DNA of 64,000 bases from Larkinella rosea (GTDB lineage Bacteria > Bacteroidota > Bacteroidia > Cytophagales > Spirosomataceae), in assembly GCF_003858635.1 (NCBI RefSeq), contig NZ_RQJO01000007.1, positions 621,941 through 685,940 on the forward strand, in the 5' to 3' direction. Positions within the stretch are counted from its first letter, which is position 1, and the number at the start of each line of letters is the position of its first letter. This document shows positions 1-6,701 of this stretch, piece by piece. The position numbers and the translations under genes were made by a program. The notes beneath the pieces were generated by a model that saw only the letters and a program-made list of their open reading frames with translations, made no database searches and was not told the origin of the DNA.

Positions 1-1298
1 GGCTCCGCAATATTTAAATGCTGGTGAGTAGCGGTAACGTAACCGACCGACGGGCTTCCGTAAATAACATTATCCCAGCACAACGGCAAACCGCGTCCCT
101 GCGGTAAACCACTGACGGTCAGATTCGCTACGAGCCAGGGTGAATACTGAAAATCGGCTGAAACCCGATTTTTAAGCAGATTCTGGGTAATGAACTGGGG
201 AGTGGCCAGCAGAACCTTCCGGGCTTGAATCGAAACCGTTTCCTTATTCAGGACATCATAACACAAAACCTGAACCCCGCGCTCGTTTTCCTGAACCGAA
301 AAGACCAGCCTATTTGAATGAACGGGTGATTGTGCCTGCTGTTCCAACTGCCTGACCAGAAAGTTGTTGCCTTCGGGCCAGGTCAGCACCGCGTTCGGTT
401 CGGCATTGGCCGCAACGCCTTTTCGGGAGGCAAAATAATGCAGTCCCGCCCAGGCCGAGGTATTCTCCAGCGTGCTGCCGTAATCATCCTTGCAGCCGTA
501 TTCCAGAAACCAACGCAAATACGTTGAGGTAAATTGCTGCTCGTTCAGGTAGGTTTCAAAGGAAACCGCATCCCACTTTCGGTAGTTCTCGTCGGTTGAG
601 GAGTTGCCGAGTGGGATGGCAAATGCATCTTTGCCGTCACTCCCTCTGGCATGTTTCAGTTGTTCGATCAGTTTGAAAAACCGGGTGATTTGCTGTTTGT
701 CGGCTTCCGGGACACCTACTTCAGGCACCAGACCCGCCTGCCAGTGGCCGTTGATAAAAAGCCGTTCTTCGGGATCGTGGCATAGGTAGTACTCATTGTA
801 AATCGGCAAACCGGCCGGATCAAAACCGGTAATGGCATGGCATTCTTTCAGAAAATCAAGCAGTTCCCGATTACGCAGGTCTGGAATGGGCAGGTAATGC
901 GCGCCCCAGGGATAGGCCGAAATCGCATTCTGACCACTGACGGAGTTGCCGCCGGTCTGATTGTCCATTTCGACCAGCAAAACATCGCGCAACCCGTGTT
1001 GCCACAACCACCGCCGGGCCGACAACCCGGCGATTCCACCTCCCACAATCAGGACTTCCGTTTCCAGCGATCGGCTCGGTAAAGGCAGTTTTTCGGGATT
1101 TCGCAGCAAATGCCCGGTCTGGTGATTGGCACCGGCCATGCCACCTTGAATGTGGTTATGGGAATTTATTGAATGGCAGGCGTTTAAGCCAGTTGAGGTG
1201 GCCAGCAAGGCGGTAAATCCCAAACCGGCGGCCTGTTCGAGAAACTGCCGGCGTCCGGGTGATTCCGGCGAATCAGTGGGCGTAGGGGGTCCAGTCAT
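1..1298 (-). CDS. Exported FAD-dependent oxidoreductase, amine-oxidase-like (partial)
   Basis: The gene runs off the left edge; 432 codons are visible from an ATG at 1298. The N-terminus has a twin-arginine-like stretch (RRQFLEQAAGLGF, residues 16-28), then a hydrophobic run and Cys41, so export by Tat, perhaps as a lipoprotein, is likely. A Rossmann FAD-binding motif, VGGGIAGLSA, lies at residues 85-94. The later LLATPQF stretch resembles flavin amine oxidases and related NAD(P)-binding Rossmann proteins. Its start overlaps the end of the aminopropyltransferase-like gene by 26 bp, so it is the last visible gene of the polyamine-type operon. Inference: it may oxidise an amine made by that pathway. 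The substrate is unknown and the C-terminus is not visible. Confidence 0.8.
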   Translation of the reverse strand, partial: MTGPPTPTDSPESPGRRQFLEQAAGLGFTALLATSTGLNACHSINSHNHIQGGMAGANHQTGHLLRNPEKLPLPSRSLETEVLIVGGGIAGLSARRWLWQHGLRDVLLVEMDNQTGGNSVSGQNAISAYPWGAHYLPIPDLRNRELLDFLKECHAITGFDPAGLPIYNEYYLCHDPEERLFINGHWQAGLVPEVGVPEADKQQITRFFKLIEQLKHARGSDGKDAFAIPLGNSSTDENYRKWDAVSFETYLNEQQFTSTYLRWFLEYGCKDDYGSTLENTSAWAGLHYFASRKGVAANAEPNAVLTWPEGNNFLVRQLEQQAQSPVHSNRLVFSVQENERGVQVLCYDVLNKETVSIQARKVLLATPQFITQNLLKNRVSADFQYSPWLVANLTVSGLPQGRGLPLCWDNVIYGSPSVGYVTATHQHLNIAE

Positions 1299-2796
1299 CT
1301 TCGAAATAATGCACCAGCACCTGGTTGTTGAGTTTGTTGATTTCGGTCGGAACCTCGGCCATGTCGGGCGGAAAATTCAGCATGTCGTGAATTGTTTTCG
1401 ACGTAATAAACCGCAGACCGGGCGGCAACGGCCCGTCGCCCCGCCAGTGGCGGTTGCGCAAAAGCATCACGTACCCCCATTCGCCAAACGAGGGGATATA
1501 GGCGTGGTACGGAATGGTTTGAAAACCGCAAGCTGCAATGGTGTTTCGAATGCACCAGAATGATTGCCGGGCAATGTAGGGCGAGGTCGATTGCACCACC
1601 GCCAGCCCCCCGGTTTTTAGCAGGCGGTTTAACTCCTGATAAAACGAGGTACTGTATAATTTGCCGATGGAATAATTCGATGGGTCGGGAAAGTCCACCA
1701 CGATCAAATCATACTGACTGGTGTCCTGACGGACAAAATTGTAGGCATCGGTATTGATTATCTGTACGTTAGGCGACAGTAACGAGCGGTGATTGAGCTT
1801 CAGCAGCAGTTCATTTTCCCGAAAAAGCGTGGTCATACCCGGGTCGAGATCAACCAGCGTGACCGACTGAACGGTTTTGTACTTCAGGATTTCACGAACC
1901 GCCAAACCGTCGCCACCGCCCAGAACGAGCACCCGGTTTGCGTTGGGAAGCGCCTGCATCGCGGGGTGGACGAGGGCTTCGTGGTAGCGGTATTCGTCGG
2001 CCGAACTAAACTGAAGGTTGCCGTTCAGGAACAACCGAAACTCGCGGTTGCTGGCCGTCAGAACAATTCGCTGGTACGACGTACTTTTGCTATAAATCAC
2101 CTTGTCCTGAAACGTCAGGTTTTCGGTGTAAGTCATGATTTGTTCCGCGTAAACAAAACCGCCGATGAGGAGAACGGAAGAAAGGAGAATGGCGGTGAGG
2201 AGCGAACGTCGATACGGTTTTGTCTCGGGAAATTGATGGAGCAGAAAACCGGCCACGCCGATGTTCATCAGTCCGAAAAACAATGACGTTCGGATGAGTC
2301 CCAGATACGGAACCAGCACCAGCGGAAAGATCAGCGAAGCCAGCAGGGCGCCAATGTAATCGAAGGTAAAAACTCTGGAAACCAGATCTTTAAAGCTGAG
2401 CTGGTTTTCAAGAATCCGCATCAGCAACGGGATTTCGAGCCCGACTAGAATCCCGGTCAAACTCACTAACGTATAGAGAATGAGCCGGAAGGAGGCCGCG
2501 TATTCGAACAGCGCGAAAAGGAGGGGAGCACTGCAGCCACCTACGATTCCGACCAGAATTTCGATGCGGATAAACCACTTCAGCAGGTTTCCGTCGAGGT
2601 ATTTGGACAGCCATGAACCGATTCCCATCGAAAATAAATAGACCCCGATGATGGTCGAAAACTGCGTAACCGAATCGCCCAGAAGGTAACTGGCCAGCGT
2701 TCCGGCCACCAGCTCATAGATGAGTCCGCAGGTGGCAATGACAAAAACCGACAACAGCAACAGCAGATGCCGGTGCCGATTCTGCGCTTTACTCAT
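1273..2796 (-). CDS. Membrane-fused spermidine synthase-like aminopropyltransferase
   Basis: About 507 residues. The N-terminal half contains roughly seven hydrophobic helices, starting with the LLLLLSVFVIATCGLIYEL segment. The C-terminal half is a spermidine-synthase fold with the AdoMet-type motif VLVLGGGDGLAVREIL, the acidic LVDLDP strand and VVDFPDP, which matches the family's catalytic-Asp region. Soluble SpeE transfers aminopropyl from decarboxylated AdoMet to putrescine; here the catalytic domain is anchored in the membrane, so the acceptor may be membrane-associated. The ATG at 2796 is preferred because it overlaps the DUF350 stop by 8 bp, implying translational coupling. An upstream in-frame start at 2829 would intrude into DUF350. 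The fold is clear, the acceptor is not. Confidence 0.85.
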   Translation of the reverse strand: MSKAQNRHRHLLLLLSVFVIATCGLIYELVAGTLASYLLGDSVTQFSTIIGVYLFSMGIGSWLSKYLDGNLLKWFIRIEILVGIVGGCSAPLLFALFEYAASFRLILYTLVSLTGILVGLEIPLLMRILENQLSFKDLVSRVFTFDYIGALLASLIFPLVLVPYLGLIRTSLFFGLMNIGVAGFLLHQFPETKPYRRSLLTAILLSSVLLIGGFVYAEQIMTYTENLTFQDKVIYSKSTSYQRIVLTASNREFRLFLNGNLQFSSADEYRYHEALVHPAMQALPNANRVLVLGGGDGLAVREILKYKTVQSVTLVDLDPGMTTLFRENELLLKLNHRSLLSPNVQIINTDAYNFVRQDTSQYDLIVVDFPDPSNYSIGKLYSTSFYQELNRLLKTGGLAVVQSTSPYIARQSFWCIRNTIAACGFQTIPYHAYIPSFGEWGYVMLLRNRHWRGDGPLPPGLRFITSKTIHDMLNFPPDMAEVPTEINKLNNQVLVHYFEDDWTPYAH

Positions 2797-3004
2797 GTAT
2801 GGCCGAACTGATGATGATGGACACCGCAATCATGAAAGCGGCCGCCAGAATGGAAAGCGCGACGTTTTCCTCATCGACGATTTTTTTCCAGAGGTTTTCG
2901 GGGGCAATTTTTTCGATGATTACGAAGCTGATGACCAGAATCAGAATGCCAACGAGCGAATAAACGACGGAAGGAACGATGTACTTCAAGGTAGACAAGT
3001 CCAT
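2789..3004 (-). CDS. DUF350 family small membrane protein
   Basis: 71 residues with two hydrophobic segments, about residues 9-31 and 48-67, separated by a charged loop containing ENLWKKIVDEENVA. This matches a single DUF350 (YjfL-like) unit; many family members carry two or more. The biochemical function is unknown. Its stop overlaps the next gene's ATG, and the preceding small gene ends 11 bp upstream, so the three genes are co-transcribed. DUF350 genes are, to my knowledge, recurrently found beside AdoMet decarboxylase and spermidine-synthase-like genes, which fits this operon. A role as a small channel or partner subunit is only inference. Confidence 0.75.
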   Translation of the reverse strand: MDLSTLKYIVPSVVYSLVGILILVISFVIIEKIAPENLWKKIVDEENVALSILAAAFMIAVSIIISSAIHE

Positions 3005-3015
3005 GTGAAAAGGGG

Positions 3016-3213
3016 TTATTTGTGGTAAAAACCGGTCCGATGGCCACTGCGCCGGCCCGAGCCATGTTGATAAGAGTTATTATCCATTTTTTCGACGCTT
3101 TCCAGATCGTCGCCCAGCAGCCGGGTTCCGTACATTCCCGCCCAGGCAAACCCCGCCGTCAACAAACCGCCCGCCAGAACAACGTATTTGATTTTCAGGA
3201 GTTTTTCGAGCAT
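3016..3213 (-). CDS. Small membrane or exported protein of the polyamine-type operon
   Basis: 65 residues. KIKYVVLAGGLLTAGFAWAG near the N-terminus is a signal peptide or a single membrane anchor. The tail is short, polar and basic (HGSGRRSGHRTGFYHK). I recognise no family. It lies 11 bp upstream of DUF350 and downstream of the DUF4178 gene, with a palindromic repeat in between, so it is probably part of the operon. Its reality rests on position, strand, the plausible targeting signal and the absence of a better reading frame. Confidence 0.6.
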   Translation of the reverse strand: MLEKLLKIKYVVLAGGLLTAGFAWAGMYGTRLLGDDLESVEKMDNNSYQHGSGRRSGHRTGFYHK

Positions 3214-3240
3214 AGTTGGGTTTTCAGTTTTCGGTTTCCA

Positions 3241-3346
3241 GTATTCGGTTTATGGTTTTCAGTTTACGGTGGGTTTCTATTTCGGGCCTGATGCTAGCCT
3301 CTGGCACGCGTCAGCCACCGTAAACTGAAAACCGTAAACCGAATAC
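3241..3346. repeat. Dispersed palindromic repeat, family A, copy 1
   Basis: Inverted repeat with 32-bp arms at 3241-3272 and 3315-3346 that differ at one position, around a 42-bp loop. The right arm shares the 20-mer ACGCGTCAGCCACCGTAAAC with the copy at 7144-7245. It sits inside the polyamine-type operon between DUF4178 and the small membrane protein, so a transcript through it would form a large hairpin that could affect expression of the genes after it. Confidence 0.8.
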
Positions 3347-3350
3347 CAAT

Positions 3351-4616
3351 CTAAGGTCCAAAATCACTTTCTTCCCAGCGTTTGTGTTCAAATACATTTT
3401 GCTGGATAAACAGGACGATTGGGTAAATGGCAATGAGGATCAGCATCAGAAACAGATTGGAATACAGAATGGGGTTCTGCACAACGGTGACATGAACTGA
3501 AAACCGGTTTTTGCCTTCGGAATTGGGGTACAAATTGAGGTGGTATTGACCGGACGGAATGTGTGACAGGATAGCCTCGTCCTTCTGCGCGCCCTCTTCC
3601 CAACTTTCCCCGCTGTCGATGCCGTGGTAATATTCCACCGTTCGTGTAAACTCGTACGATTGCCCGGAAGTCTCGTTGATCAGGCTGATCGGTACTTCCA
3701 CCCAATTGTTATCGACGTTGGCTTTCAATTTAATCGCCATCGCCGATGGCCCGGCAAAGGCAAATGAAGACGTCACGATGGGCTGGTTCGAGCCTGGCAG
3801 CGTTGAATCCGAATTCCAGGAATACGATTGATCGAAAAGGGTTTTTTGCGGTTTTATAATGTAAAAAAGCACTTGAATCACGACGACCAGCAACGCCAGG
3901 CGGGTAGCCAGCCACGTGACGGTCGGGCGTTTCTGACCCGCGGAAGACGGTTGAATGGCACCGATACCCAGCGGTTTTGGCAGGGGAGATGGCAATCCGA
4001 AGGCGGTCGTGATTTCCTGGGGAGTTTTGTAAACCGCTTTATACCACTCGGTTCCCTGGAGGCCCACTTCGCGACTCAGCAAATAAGGCGGATGAATGTA
4101 TTCGGAAATATTCAGTTTCGAATCTTCCAGGACATCCCAATAAAACTCCCCAACGGCGTTCAGCACCCGGCAGTTATACCGGTTATAAAGGGTATATTCA
4201 CGATCTTCGTCCGTAACGTTCTTGCCTTTTTCCTCCTGGTAATTTCCTTCCGCCGGTCGCATGACCATCCAGTGGCCGTTGAATTCAGACAATACCTGAT
4301 AACCGCTTTCTTTGGTCATCAGGACATACTCCAGCCAGGGATCGGCGTATTTTTCTTCCCGTTTTTTGATGATTCCCGTCACCCGAACCCATTTTCCGTC
4401 AATGTAACCCTCCGAACCAACTGCCAAAGGGGTCGGTTCCAGCCGGGTTGGAAACGTTGTTTTTCGATCAATGGGGCCGGTATCACCATAGTAGAAGTAA
4501 GTCTGACATTGGGCGCAGCCGAAATAACTACTCTCCGTTAGGTCGTATCCCGGAATGGGCGTGTTGCAAACCGGACAGTCGAACGATGTGGGGGCGGAAG
4601 ACTCGTTGAAGGGCAT
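3351..4616 (-). CDS. DUF4178-type zinc-ribbon membrane protein
   Basis: 421 residues from an ATG at 4616. An N-terminal zinc ribbon (CPVC, then CAQC about 20 residues later) precedes a domain rich in beta strands, containing TPLAVGSEGYIDGKWVRVTG and LYNRYNCRVLNAVGEFYW, that looks like DUF4178. Two hydrophobic helices follow: one after WLATRLALLVVVIQVLFYII and one near the C-terminus (LYSNLFLMLILIAIYPIVLF). A TTG twelve bases further upstream directly follows the speD-like stop and could also be used. DUF4178 has no established activity; to my knowledge it is often coded near DUF350 and AdoMet decarboxylase genes. The ribbon and helices suggest a membrane scaffold. Confidence 0.75.
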   Translation of the reverse strand: MPFNESSAPTSFDCPVCNTPIPGYDLTESSYFGCAQCQTYFYYGDTGPIDRKTTFPTRLEPTPLAVGSEGYIDGKWVRVTGIIKKREEKYADPWLEYVLMTKESGYQVLSEFNGHWMVMRPAEGNYQEEKGKNVTDEDREYTLYNRYNCRVLNAVGEFYWDVLEDSKLNISEYIHPPYLLSREVGLQGTEWYKAVYKTPQEITTAFGLPSPLPKPLGIGAIQPSSAGQKRPTVTWLATRLALLVVVIQVLFYIIKPQKTLFDQSYSWNSDSTLPGSNQPIVTSSFAFAGPSAMAIKLKANVDNNWVEVPISLINETSGQSYEFTRTVEYYHGIDSGESWEEGAQKDEAILSHIPSGQYHLNLYPNSEGKNRFSVHVTVVQNPILYSNLFLMLILIAIYPIVLFIQQNVFEHKRWEESDFGP

Positions 4617-4628
4617 GGCTTGGTACAA

Positions 4629-4985
4629 TCAGCGGGTTATTTCCTGTTCATGAATGACCGAGGTTACCTCAAACAAACGCAATGATTCTTCATAAAACCG
4701 GCGGACTTTCAGGGTGTTATCGTGTTGGAAATTAGACAGGAAAACGTCAAATGTCGCCAAACCACTTTCGGGCCAGGTGTGAATCGACACGTGGGATTCG
4801 GTGAGGCAGAGCACCGCCGTAAAACCGTGGTTTGGAAAGGAATGATAGACTTCTCCAACCTTCGAAAGCCCCAGTTCCTGAATCAGCCGGTCAAAACCCG
4901 AACGGCACCGCTCAATGTCCGTCAACGCGGTCATTGGGGCTTCAAACGTTGCGAGTATGTGCAGGCCGGGGCGGTAGGAGGTCAT
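4629..4985 (-). CDS. S-adenosylmethionine decarboxylase-like proenzyme, atypical active site
   Basis: 118 residues, the size of the short prokaryotic SpeD/SpeH class. The self-cleavage site is intact: TESHVSIHTWPE puts Glu63-Ser64 where the chain would break to give the pyruvoyl group, and His69 is present. In the Thermotoga maritima enzyme, as I recall its sequence, catalytic Cys83 lies in the DLFTCG stretch; the aligned stretch here is DVFLSN, giving Ser84 instead. Ser55 of that enzyme aligns with Thr56. The fold is clear, but the enzyme may be slow, modified or use another substrate. The ATG at 4985 is chosen over a TTG nine bases upstream. It lies 21 bp after the TPR gene and 12 bp before DUF4178. 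Confidence 0.85.
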   Translation of the reverse strand: MTSYRPGLHILATFEAPMTALTDIERCRSGFDRLIQELGLSKVGEVYHSFPNHGFTAVLCLTESHVSIHTWPESGLATFDVFLSNFQHDNTLKVRRFYEESLRLFEVTSVIHEQEITR

Positions 4986-5006
4986 GGCCCGCAAGATAGG
5001 ATTTCG

Positions 5007-6701
5007 TCAGTTATTTTTGGGAAAATTTTGCGCTAAAAATCCAGCATCAGCTTTCAACCAGCCTTTCCGGGCCAATTGGCGCTCGTTTTCGGCTGTGACT
5101 TTGTCACCTTTCAGGTCGGCAATCCGGGCAAGGACGAAATGCGTACCGGGATAATACGGGTCATGTTCAGCCAAAACCTTGGTGGATTCCTCCGCGAACT
5201 CGGTCAGTTTCAACTGCGTAGCCACTTGTGCAATCATTTCCAGTTGAAACAACGCTTCGATCCACGGATCCGGACCGGTTTGGTCGCGGGCGCTGGCCTG
5301 GAACTTGCGAATGTCGGCCAGGCCTTTTTCACGCGCTGCAGGATCATGCAGTCCAATCAAACTGGCTAAAAATTTCGGATGCGGATCGAGCCAGGCATTC
5401 AGCCAGTCGGTTTGGGCTTCTTTTTTGGCTTCCACCAGTTCGGTTTGAGCGGTTTTCAACGAAGCCTTCGCCTGATCGAGCTGGTTCTTTTTCAGCGCAA
5501 TCATGCCCAGCAAATAATGACCGATCACGCGCTCACCAGGGGTTTTGCCTTTTGTCATTTCGACGGCGATTGGGGCGGCCTCGGCATCCCGGTTTTGCGT
5601 AATCAGCAAAGTCGGATAACCCATTTTATTGTAGAACGTCCGCTCCAGATTGATGGGGCGTTTGATCTCAAACCGCTCTTTTACCAATTTTTCGGCCTCC
5701 TGAATCCGGCCCTGGTACTGGTAGCAAAGCGCCAGCAACGAAATGTTGTGAATGTGGTGCCAGTCGTACATCGGATCGTATTTTTCGCTCGTATACAAAC
5801 CACGTTCGATGGCGTCCGTCTGTTTCATTTCCGCAATGGCATTGTCGACATCACCGGTTTTCATCAAATCGTGCGCATACATGTGCAGTGCGTGGGCCAG
5901 ATTTGGTGCCAACCGCGCGTAGGCTTTGCCGTGTTTCAACGCTTCGGTGTAATCGCCCATTCCCTCATACGCGTGAATCAGGTAATGATGAGCCGCCGGG
6001 TGTTCGGGTGCAAACTGGAGAATTTTTTCGTAAATGGCGATGCTGCCGGTCGACGACCCCTGCCCACGACCGGTGGCGAATTTTTCGTACGAGTTGCCGG
6101 ACAACAGCCACAACTCCGGGTCAGTCGGAAATTTCTTGACGATCCCGTTTACTTTCGTCCGGTAGTCGTTCAATAGTTTCTGGTTGCTGAGCGAATCGAC
6201 GGCTTTCAGTTGGGCAAACCGCAATTCGATGTGGCCTTTTTCCCGATCTGATGCATACTTTGAAAACGATCTGGCGGTTTCGGCAGCTTTTAAAGCGGCT
6301 TTATTATCTTCCAGTTGAATATACAGGCGGCTCAATCCGACATGTGCCATCACGAATGTCGAGTCCAGTTTGATCGCTTCGTGAAAGGAGCGGGCGGCTT
6401 CAACCAGCGCATAGCCGTGTAAATAGGCCATTCCCTGTTCGAAATAAGCCTGTGCTTTCGGGCTTTTGGTAGAGGTTGGCGTCGGGTATTGCCCGACATT
6501 CGGGCGCAGGGCAACGGATTGTTGCAGCAGTGAATACGGTATGCCACCAATGTGAGACATGCCGCAAATGGGCGCATAAGGAACCTCAATATGAGCGAGT
6601 TCTGGCTCAGGTTGAAGTTGCTTTTTCGTTGATACGAATTCACCGACCAGCAAAGCTGCCAGTAGTATGGGAAGAAAAGAGTAGGTATAAAGCCGTTTCA
6701 T
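5007..6701 (-). CDS. Exported tetratricopeptide-repeat protein
   Basis: 564 residues. An N-terminal hydrophobic segment (SFLPILLAALLVGEFV) acts as signal peptide or anchor; no lipobox is seen. TPR units follow along the chain, for example AQAYFEQGMAYLHGYALVEA, AHVGLSRLYIQLEDNKAAL, AAHHYLIHAYEGMGDYTEAL and HIHNISLLALCYQYQGRIQEA. TPR solenoids bind other proteins; no catalytic domain is seen. It is the first gene of the minus-strand block, 21 bp before the SpeD-like gene, so it is likely co-transcribed and may organise the other products at the membrane. That role is inference. Confidence 0.8.
   Translation of the reverse strand: MKRLYTYSFLPILLAALLVGEFVSTKKQLQPEPELAHIEVPYAPICGMSHIGGIPYSLLQQSVALRPNVGQYPTPTSTKSPKAQAYFEQGMAYLHGYALVEAARSFHEAIKLDSTFVMAHVGLSRLYIQLEDNKAALKAAETARSFSKYASDREKGHIELRFAQLKAVDSLSNQKLLNDYRTKVNGIVKKFPTDPELWLLSGNSYEKFATGRGQGSSTGSIAIYEKILQFAPEHPAAHHYLIHAYEGMGDYTEALKHGKAYARLAPNLAHALHMYAHDLMKTGDVDNAIAEMKQTDAIERGLYTSEKYDPMYDWHHIHNISLLALCYQYQGRIQEAEKLVKERFEIKRPINLERTFYNKMGYPTLLITQNRDAEAAPIAVEMTKGKTPGERVIGHYLLGMIALKKNQLDQAKASLKTAQTELVEAKKEAQTDWLNAWLDPHPKFLASLIGLHDPAAREKGLADIRKFQASARDQTGPDPWIEALFQLEMIAQVATQLKLTEFAEESTKVLAEHDPYYPGTHFVLARIADLKGDKVTAENERQLARKGWLKADAGFLAQNFPKNN

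What the first reader, a model, noticed from the sequence alone, without database searches (positions are those of the whole stretch)
1..6701. Membrane polyamine-type modification operon
Seven same-strand genes with overlaps or short gaps combine a TPR protein, a SpeD-like proenzyme, DUF4178 with a zinc ribbon and helices, a small membrane protein, DUF350, a spermidine synthase fused to about seven membrane helices, and a Tat-exported flavin oxidoreductase. Seen: the gene order, the 8-bp and 26-bp overlaps and the membrane segments. Established: AdoMet decarboxylase plus aminopropyltransferase makes polyamines. Inference: here the aminopropyl unit is used at the membrane on a lipid, peptide or cell-wall target and then oxidised outside. 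No putrescine-forming enzyme is in the visible part.
Basis: partly seen in the sequence, partly recalled or inferred. Interest (0 to 1): 0.75.

Follow-up and report, generated by a model that had tools for sequence, protein, structure and literature searches.

The report
Membrane aminopropyl-transfer operon with exported oxidase
A conserved set of bacterial genes looks like a membrane machine that attaches the building block of polyamines to a still unknown target and then oxidises the product outside the cell; the core was already known, but this version, with an exported oxidase and an altered decarboxylase, looks like a distinct branch.

Summary
Seven same-strand genes sit where stated in a genome that is most likely Larkinella (Bacteroidota): TPR, SpeD, DUF4178, small protein, half-length DUF350, membrane-fused SpeE, and a Tat-type flavin amine oxidase that runs off the window. 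63 of the 80 best named relatives carry SpeD, DUF4178, DUF350, SpeE and oxidase on one strand; in 395 genomes of the phylum the oxidase was found in 15, always within 0.75 kb of fused SpeE. TPR was seen only in Larkinella. The core (fused SpeE, DUF350, DUF4178) is in print as a PspA-linked operon, and aminopropylation of other substrates is already proposed there. This variant differs: no PspA nearby in any of the 15, and in most relatives (not Larkinella) an unnamed His-rich membrane protein follows. Its SpeD is divergent, with Ser at the catalytic Cys83; its SpeE keeps the catalytic residues but has a changed acceptor side. I favour aminopropylation of a non-putrescine membrane acceptor, then oxidation outside. 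The acceptor is unknown; a membrane polyamine synthase is not excluded. New variant of a known kind.

The parts
5007..6701 (-). TPR protein, 564 aa, one N-terminal hydrophobic segment; first gene of the run, seen in Larkinella only
   Evidence: found in 2 of 80 named loci, both Larkinella
4629..4994 (-). SpeD homologue (class 1b AdoMetDC family), 121 aa; Ser67 (cleavage) and His72 kept, Ser87 at the Cys83 position
3351..4628 (-). DUF4178 protein, 425 aa: four-Cys ribbon and DUF4178 domain (1-228), helix 229-258, beta-sandwich 262-385, helix 389-419 (ATG at 4616)
3016..3213 (-). small protein, 65 aa, conserved C-terminal FYHK, apolar N-terminal stretch
2789..3004 (-). DUF350, half-length two-helix form, 71 aa
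1273..2829 (-). membrane-fused spermidine-synthase-like aminopropyltransferase, 518 aa (507 from ATG 2796)
1..1298 (-). flavin amine oxidase-like protein with twin-arginine signal and a Cys after the hydrophobic stretch; continues beyond the window (552 aa in L002 11581-13239)

Best explanation
A membrane-bound aminopropyl-transfer pathway separate from bulk polyamine synthesis. Inferred order: (1) the pyruvoyl enzyme SpeD decarboxylates AdoMet; (2) the SpeE domain, held at the inner membrane by its N-terminal helices and by DUF350, the small protein and DUF4178, transfers the aminopropyl group to an amine other than putrescine, most likely a membrane-embedded or membrane-delivered acceptor; (3) the product crosses the membrane; (4) the Tat-exported, probably lipid-anchored flavin amine oxidase acts on it outside, in most relatives together with the His-rich protein TM8. 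Shown here: the genes, their conservation, the tie of the oxidase to this setting, the residue changes and the predicted folds. Inferred: every reaction, the acceptor, the direction of flow.
Against: No acceptor is identified. NF002956 names the SpeE a polyamine aminopropyltransferase. A putrescine route may exist elsewhere in the genome. SpeD lacks the Cys83 of the solved enzyme, so its activity is open. Eight of 80 named loci lack a detectable DUF350 and nine lack SpeD in the locus, three of these nine at a contig edge. DUF4178 is not confined to the cassette: of 15 DUF4178 loci fetched from relatives, 8 showed none of the other window genes. Twelve divergent fused SpeE rows share only part of the acceptor-side change (F448 in 4, H442 in 8, T415 in 6 of 12). 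No lysine column of the oxidase is invariant (best 75 of 99), so it may not be an O2-using oxidase.
Confidence: 0.5

Rival explanations
1. A membrane-tethered ordinary polyamine synthase: SpeE makes spermidine, aminopropylagmatine or another free polyamine, which is exported and broken down by the outer oxidase.
For: NF002956 676 bits over cut-off; both catalytic Asp kept; SpeA-like protein and agmatine deiminase in the genome; nearest solved fold of the oxidase is putrescine oxidase; PMC11107197 says its motifs do not separate SpdSyn and N1-aminopropylagmatine synthases (section 10).
Against: Acceptor-side residues differ from those of the shorter SpeE rows in 99 of 99; canonical SpeD/SpeE neighbours occur in other genomes of the phylum (places); recalled abstract of Li 2019 (not held): fusion proteins do not complement a spermidine synthase deletion and spermidine is absent from such bacteria.
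Confidence: 0.27
2. An envelope-stress module of the PspA kind: the enzymes tune polyamine or lipid charge in response to a signal sensed by the beta-sandwich of DUF4178; catalysis is secondary to signalling.
For: The PSP paper links fused SpeE, DUF350 and DUF4178 to PspA-CesT operons; the model of DUF4178 has two long helices, a ribbon before them and a beta-sandwich between them; PspA lies within 3 kb of SpeE in 5 of 14 fused-SpeE genomes without the oxidase.
Against: No PspA match in 13 of 15 oxidase-type genomes including this one, and none near SpeE in 15 of 15; oxidase-linked and PspA-linked SpeE rows fall in separate clades.
Confidence: 0.13
3. Neighbours by descent only: the oxidase is an unrelated exported enzyme that happens to travel with the operon.
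For: Its substrate is unknown; its sequence similarity to solved amine oxidases is weak. Two genomes whose SpeE falls in the oxidase clade lack the oxidase (G293, G325).
Against: 15 of 15 genomes with it have it next to fused SpeE (only the best three candidates of each genome were scored); 79 of 80 named loci; overlapping reading frames in the window.
Confidence: 0.06

Closest known systems
PspA-CesT/Tir operon with 7TM-spermine/spermidine synthase fusion, DUF350, DUF4178 (PMC11237479, second group; passages read; its figures and tables not seen)
   Same: Fused SpeE, DUF350 and DUF4178 in one operon; membrane setting; aminopropylation of other substrates raised as an idea.
   Different: Here no PspA nearby; DUF350 is the 71-aa half form (281-299 aa in 7 of 8 loci of the PspA-type SpeE clade, not detected in the eighth); a Tat-type flavin oxidase is adjacent, TM8 usually. 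SpeD is inside the operon here; in the PspA-type clade a SpeD was seen in the stretch in 4 of 8 loci, on the other strand in two of them. The passages read name no flavin oxidase for that group.
AdoMetDC + MFS-SpdSyn fusion + DUF350 clusters (Li et al. 2019, Biochem J 476:2579; only the citation seen; abstract recalled)
   Same: SpeD with a membrane-fused SpeE that is thought not to make spermidine, and DUF350 (recalled).
   Different: Whether that paper covers the oxidase, TM8 or the Cys83 to Ser change could not be checked (paper not held).
Band-7/SHOCT or DUF4247/DUF2617 operons with AdoMet decarboxylase and polyamine oxidase (PMC11237479, variants of the third group; passages read)
   Same: A polyamine oxidase and an AdoMet decarboxylase in a DUF350-type operon.
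   Different: They are described as variants of operons with an ATP-grasp ligase related to glutathionylspermidine synthetase, not of the fused SpeE-DUF4178 group.
Putrescine oxidase / monoamine oxidase fold
   Different: Mostly 15-18% identity, Tat-type signal, no invariant Lys column.

Membership tests
PSP-paper group 2 (fused SpeE-DUF350-DUF4178 with PspA) | Spermidine-synthase domain fused to N-terminal membrane helices | tested here: met
   NF002956 over nearly full length; five hydrophobic segments before residue 230
PSP-paper group 2 (fused SpeE-DUF350-DUF4178 with PspA) | DUF350 and DUF4178 in the operon | tested here: met
   PF03994 and PF13785 above cut-offs; DUF350 half length
PSP-paper group 2 (fused SpeE-DUF350-DUF4178 with PspA) | CesT/Tir-PspA dyad in the operon | tested here: not met
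   no PF04012 match in the whole genome; CesT itself was not searched
PSP-paper group 2 (fused SpeE-DUF350-DUF4178 with PspA) | Ctha_1186-type lipoprotein | not tested
   no model at hand; the 65-aa protein has no Pfam match
Spermidine synthase (SpeE) | Catalytic Asp pair (DxxDP) and GGGDG donor site | tested here: met
   D379, D382 and D307 in 99 of 99 cassette rows
Spermidine synthase (SpeE) | Acceptor-site Tyr and neighbours as in canonical enzymes (role recalled) | tested here: not met
   F448/H442/T415 in 99 of 99 against Y448/L442 in 25 of 31 and E415 in 27 of 31, the rest gapped
Spermidine synthase (SpeE) | Makes spermidine from putrescine | not testable with these tools
   needs an assay
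Class 1b AdoMet decarboxylase | Processing Ser63 and His68 (T. maritima numbers) | tested here: met
   ESHVSIHTWPE aligned to 1tlu; roles from PMC10407285 section 7
Class 1b AdoMet decarboxylase | Catalytic Cys83 | tested here: not met
   Ser87 aligned to Cys83 of 1tlu; Ser in 75 of 146 deduplicated rows, all in fused-SpeE cassette loci
Class 1b AdoMet decarboxylase | NCBIfam equivalog TIGR03330 cut-off (75.65 bits) | tested here: not met
   66.5 bits; Pfam PF02675 is above its cut-off
Class 1b AdoMet decarboxylase | Conserved Pro that separates AdoMetDC from arginine decarboxylase forms | tested here: inconclusive
   HTWPE keeps a Pro; the paper's figure was not seen, so that this is the marked Pro is inferred
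Flavin amine oxidase | Amine-oxidase fold and FAD site | tested here: met
Flavin amine oxidase | Conserved Lys near flavin N5 as in MAO and PAO (recalled) | tested here: inconclusive
   no Lys column over 75 of 99
Tat-exported (lipo)protein | Twin-arginine motif, hydrophobic region, lipobox-like Cys | tested here: met
   window protein has RRQFL, a hydrophobic stretch and a Cys; 89 of 100 copies likewise (78 RR, 11 RK); export itself not testable

The most novel reading that the evidence does not exclude
The Cys83 to Ser SpeD clade is a neofunctionalised pyruvoyl enzyme dedicated to this cassette, and the cassette builds a so far undescribed aminopropylated (or similarly alkylated) membrane component that is flipped out and oxidised, by the Tat flavoenzyme and in most lineages the His-rich TM8, to a reactive aldehyde or cyclic imine on the cell surface: a new type of envelope modification in Bacteroidota.
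Probability: 0.2. Interest if true: 0.85.

Novelty: new variant of a known kind. Interest (0 to 1): 0.52.

Why it matters
AdoMet decarboxylase and aminopropyltransferases are textbook polyamine enzymes. A conserved operon that appears to use them for something else leaves an open question: what is aminopropylated. This variant narrows it: an exported flavoenzyme that was found only beside the operon gives a second handle, since its mutant should accumulate the product outside the cytoplasm. The Cys83 to Ser change in the only SpeD found in the genome is a clear, cheap biochemical test.

Full report
What is there. The window is part of a 2.16-Mb contig of an 8.17-Mb genome. Named near relatives with 89-91% identical SpeE are Larkinella species, so the window is most likely Larkinella (Bacteroidota, Cytophagales, Spirosomataceae). 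The oxidase gene runs off the window and is complete in L002. In Larkinella a SnoaL-like gene follows it.

Conservation. Six of the nine genomes of the genus, the own genome included, have a DUF4178 match; in all six the complete run TPR-SpeD-DUF4178-small protein-DUF350-SpeE-oxidase-SnoaL is there. Of the 15 DUF4178 loci fetched from relatives, 7 show the cassette and 8 show no other window gene, so DUF4178 has other settings too. Among the 80 best named relatives (of 571 confirmed), presence anywhere in the locus is: DUF4178 80, SpeE 80 (by construction), oxidase 79, DUF350 72, SpeD 71, small protein 69, TPR 2 and SnoaL 2 (both Larkinella) of 80; the small-protein profile is short and its weaker hits are near 30 bits. 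Under a stricter rule, 63 of 80 have SpeD, DUF4178, DUF350, SpeE and oxidase on one strand within 5.5 kb of SpeE; four cassettes start at a contig edge. Most record titles name Bacteroidota, with MAGs labelled Verrucomicrobia, Deltaproteobacteria, Oligoflexia, Alphaproteobacteria, Sericytochromatia and Chlorobaculum among them. In a sample of 395 genomes drawn evenly from the phylum, fused SpeE (NF002956 above cut-off) occurs in 29. The oxidase profile (A7) matches in 15 of the 395 at E <= 1e-30, and in 15 of 15 it lies within 0.75 kb of fused SpeE (the tool scored only the best three candidates of each genome).

Two types of the system. In the 29 fused-SpeE genomes, DUF350 was found near SpeE in 26 and DUF4178 in 20, two of these weak at 20-22 bits (the own genome added). 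A SpeE tree of 51 rows puts 36 of 36 oxidase-linked rows in one group of 39 (SH-aLRT 99) and 5 of 5 PspA-linked rows in a separate group of 8 (SH-aLRT 100); the root is by midpoint. Two of the three oxidase-less rows in the first group, G293 and G325, have the rest of the cassette. PspA occurs in 2 of 15 oxidase-type genomes, never near SpeE, and not in the window's genome; in the 14 others it occurs in 11, within 3 kb of SpeE in 5. In the PspA-type group, DUF350 is the long form of 281-299 aa in 7 of 8 loci and undetected in one. The published description of fused SpeE, DUF350 and DUF4178 is of the PspA type (PMC11237479, passages; figures and tables not seen); the passages read name no flavin oxidase for it, although they name a polyamine oxidase with AdoMetDC in a sister group.

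A further member. A roughly 355-aa multi-helix protein with many invariant His, Trp and Asp residues (TM8) follows the oxidase in most relatives: found in 67 of 80 named loci and beside the oxidase in 10 of the 15 oxidase-type genomes of the sample. Another 12 genomes have a partial or weak match elsewhere. It has no Pfam match of note. No match was found in the window's genome at E <= 1e-10.

SpeD. In the alignment to the solved T. maritima enzyme (1tlu), the window's Ser87 stands at Cys83; the processing Ser and His are kept. PMC10407285 (section 7 read) gives S63, H68 and C83 as essential for self-processing, with H68 and C83 also in catalysis, and its authors expected them to be conserved in the decarboxylase offshoots. 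Of 146 deduplicated SpeD rows, 75 have Ser and 71 Cys there; a further Ser row (L159) was missed by my pattern. The 50 rows from loci without fused SpeE all have Cys. In the SpeD tree 85 rows, all from fused-SpeE loci, sit on one branch of length 3.23 with 100/100 support; the Ser state needs two changes, with a nested group of 10 Cys rows, so the simplest history is loss of Cys at the base and return in one group, but inner support is moderate, the columns are few and the program warns of long branches. Each of the 80 genomes with a match has a single SpeD, so the Ser form is the only SpeD found in Larkinella. Whether it decarboxylates AdoMet is open; my recollection of mutants of the human enzyme at this Cys is of lower activity and more suicide inactivation.

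SpeE. All 99 cassette rows keep the Asp pair and donor-site residues. At positions that face the acceptor in solved enzymes (assignment recalled), they have F448, H442 and T415 throughout, against Y448 and L442 in 25 and E415 in 27 of 31 shorter or low-scoring SpeE rows, the rest gapped; 12 divergent fused rows are mixed. One donor-site position also differs: D327 in 99 of 99, against E in 28 of 31. PMC11107197 (section 10) says its motifs do not separate spermidine from aminopropylagmatine synthases, so sequence alone cannot name the acceptor.

Polyamine setting. The searches found one SpeD and one SpeE in the genome, no agmatinase, no PF01916 enzyme, diaminopimelate decarboxylase and one SpeA-like protein below its cut-off, and an agmatine deiminase family match. 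Putrescine is thus possible but not assured; other routes were not searched.

Verdict. Observation confirmed; interpretation partly supported. The core idea, aminopropylation of something other than a polyamine at the membrane, is already in print as a proposal (PMC11237479; Li 2019, recalled). New here, as far as my searches of the held library go (listings, with passages read of three papers; bioRxiv and most subscription papers are not held), are the split into a PspA type and an exported-oxidase type, the tie of that oxidase to fused SpeE, the TM8 partner, and the Cys83 to Ser SpeD clade.

Noticed in passing
L078 12138-13211 (+) and relatives (alignment A8): TM8, a His-rich multi-helix protein family without Pfam entry, next to the oxidase in most cassettes but not found in Larkinella; distant single relatives exist in other families of the phylum.
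   Followed up: partly
L002 11057-11524 (-): SnoaL-like 155-aa gene follows the oxidase gene in the Larkinella cassettes seen and in none of the other loci examined.
   Followed up: partly
L149-L158: Cassettes of one group of the phylum keep Cys at the SpeD position where the window clade has Ser, nested inside the Ser clade in the tree.
   Followed up: partly
L100, L103, L111, L112 (Botryobacter, Rufibacter, Rufibacter, Adhaeribacter): Cassettes with two or more DUF4178 ORFs but no SpeD in the locus; whether SpeD lies elsewhere in these genomes was not checked.
   Followed up: no
L200 1300-2790 (+): SpeA-like 496-aa protein below the curated cut-off, beside a gene that looks like a Mur ligase (by eye); a shortened arginine decarboxylase or another PLP decarboxylase.
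   Followed up: partly
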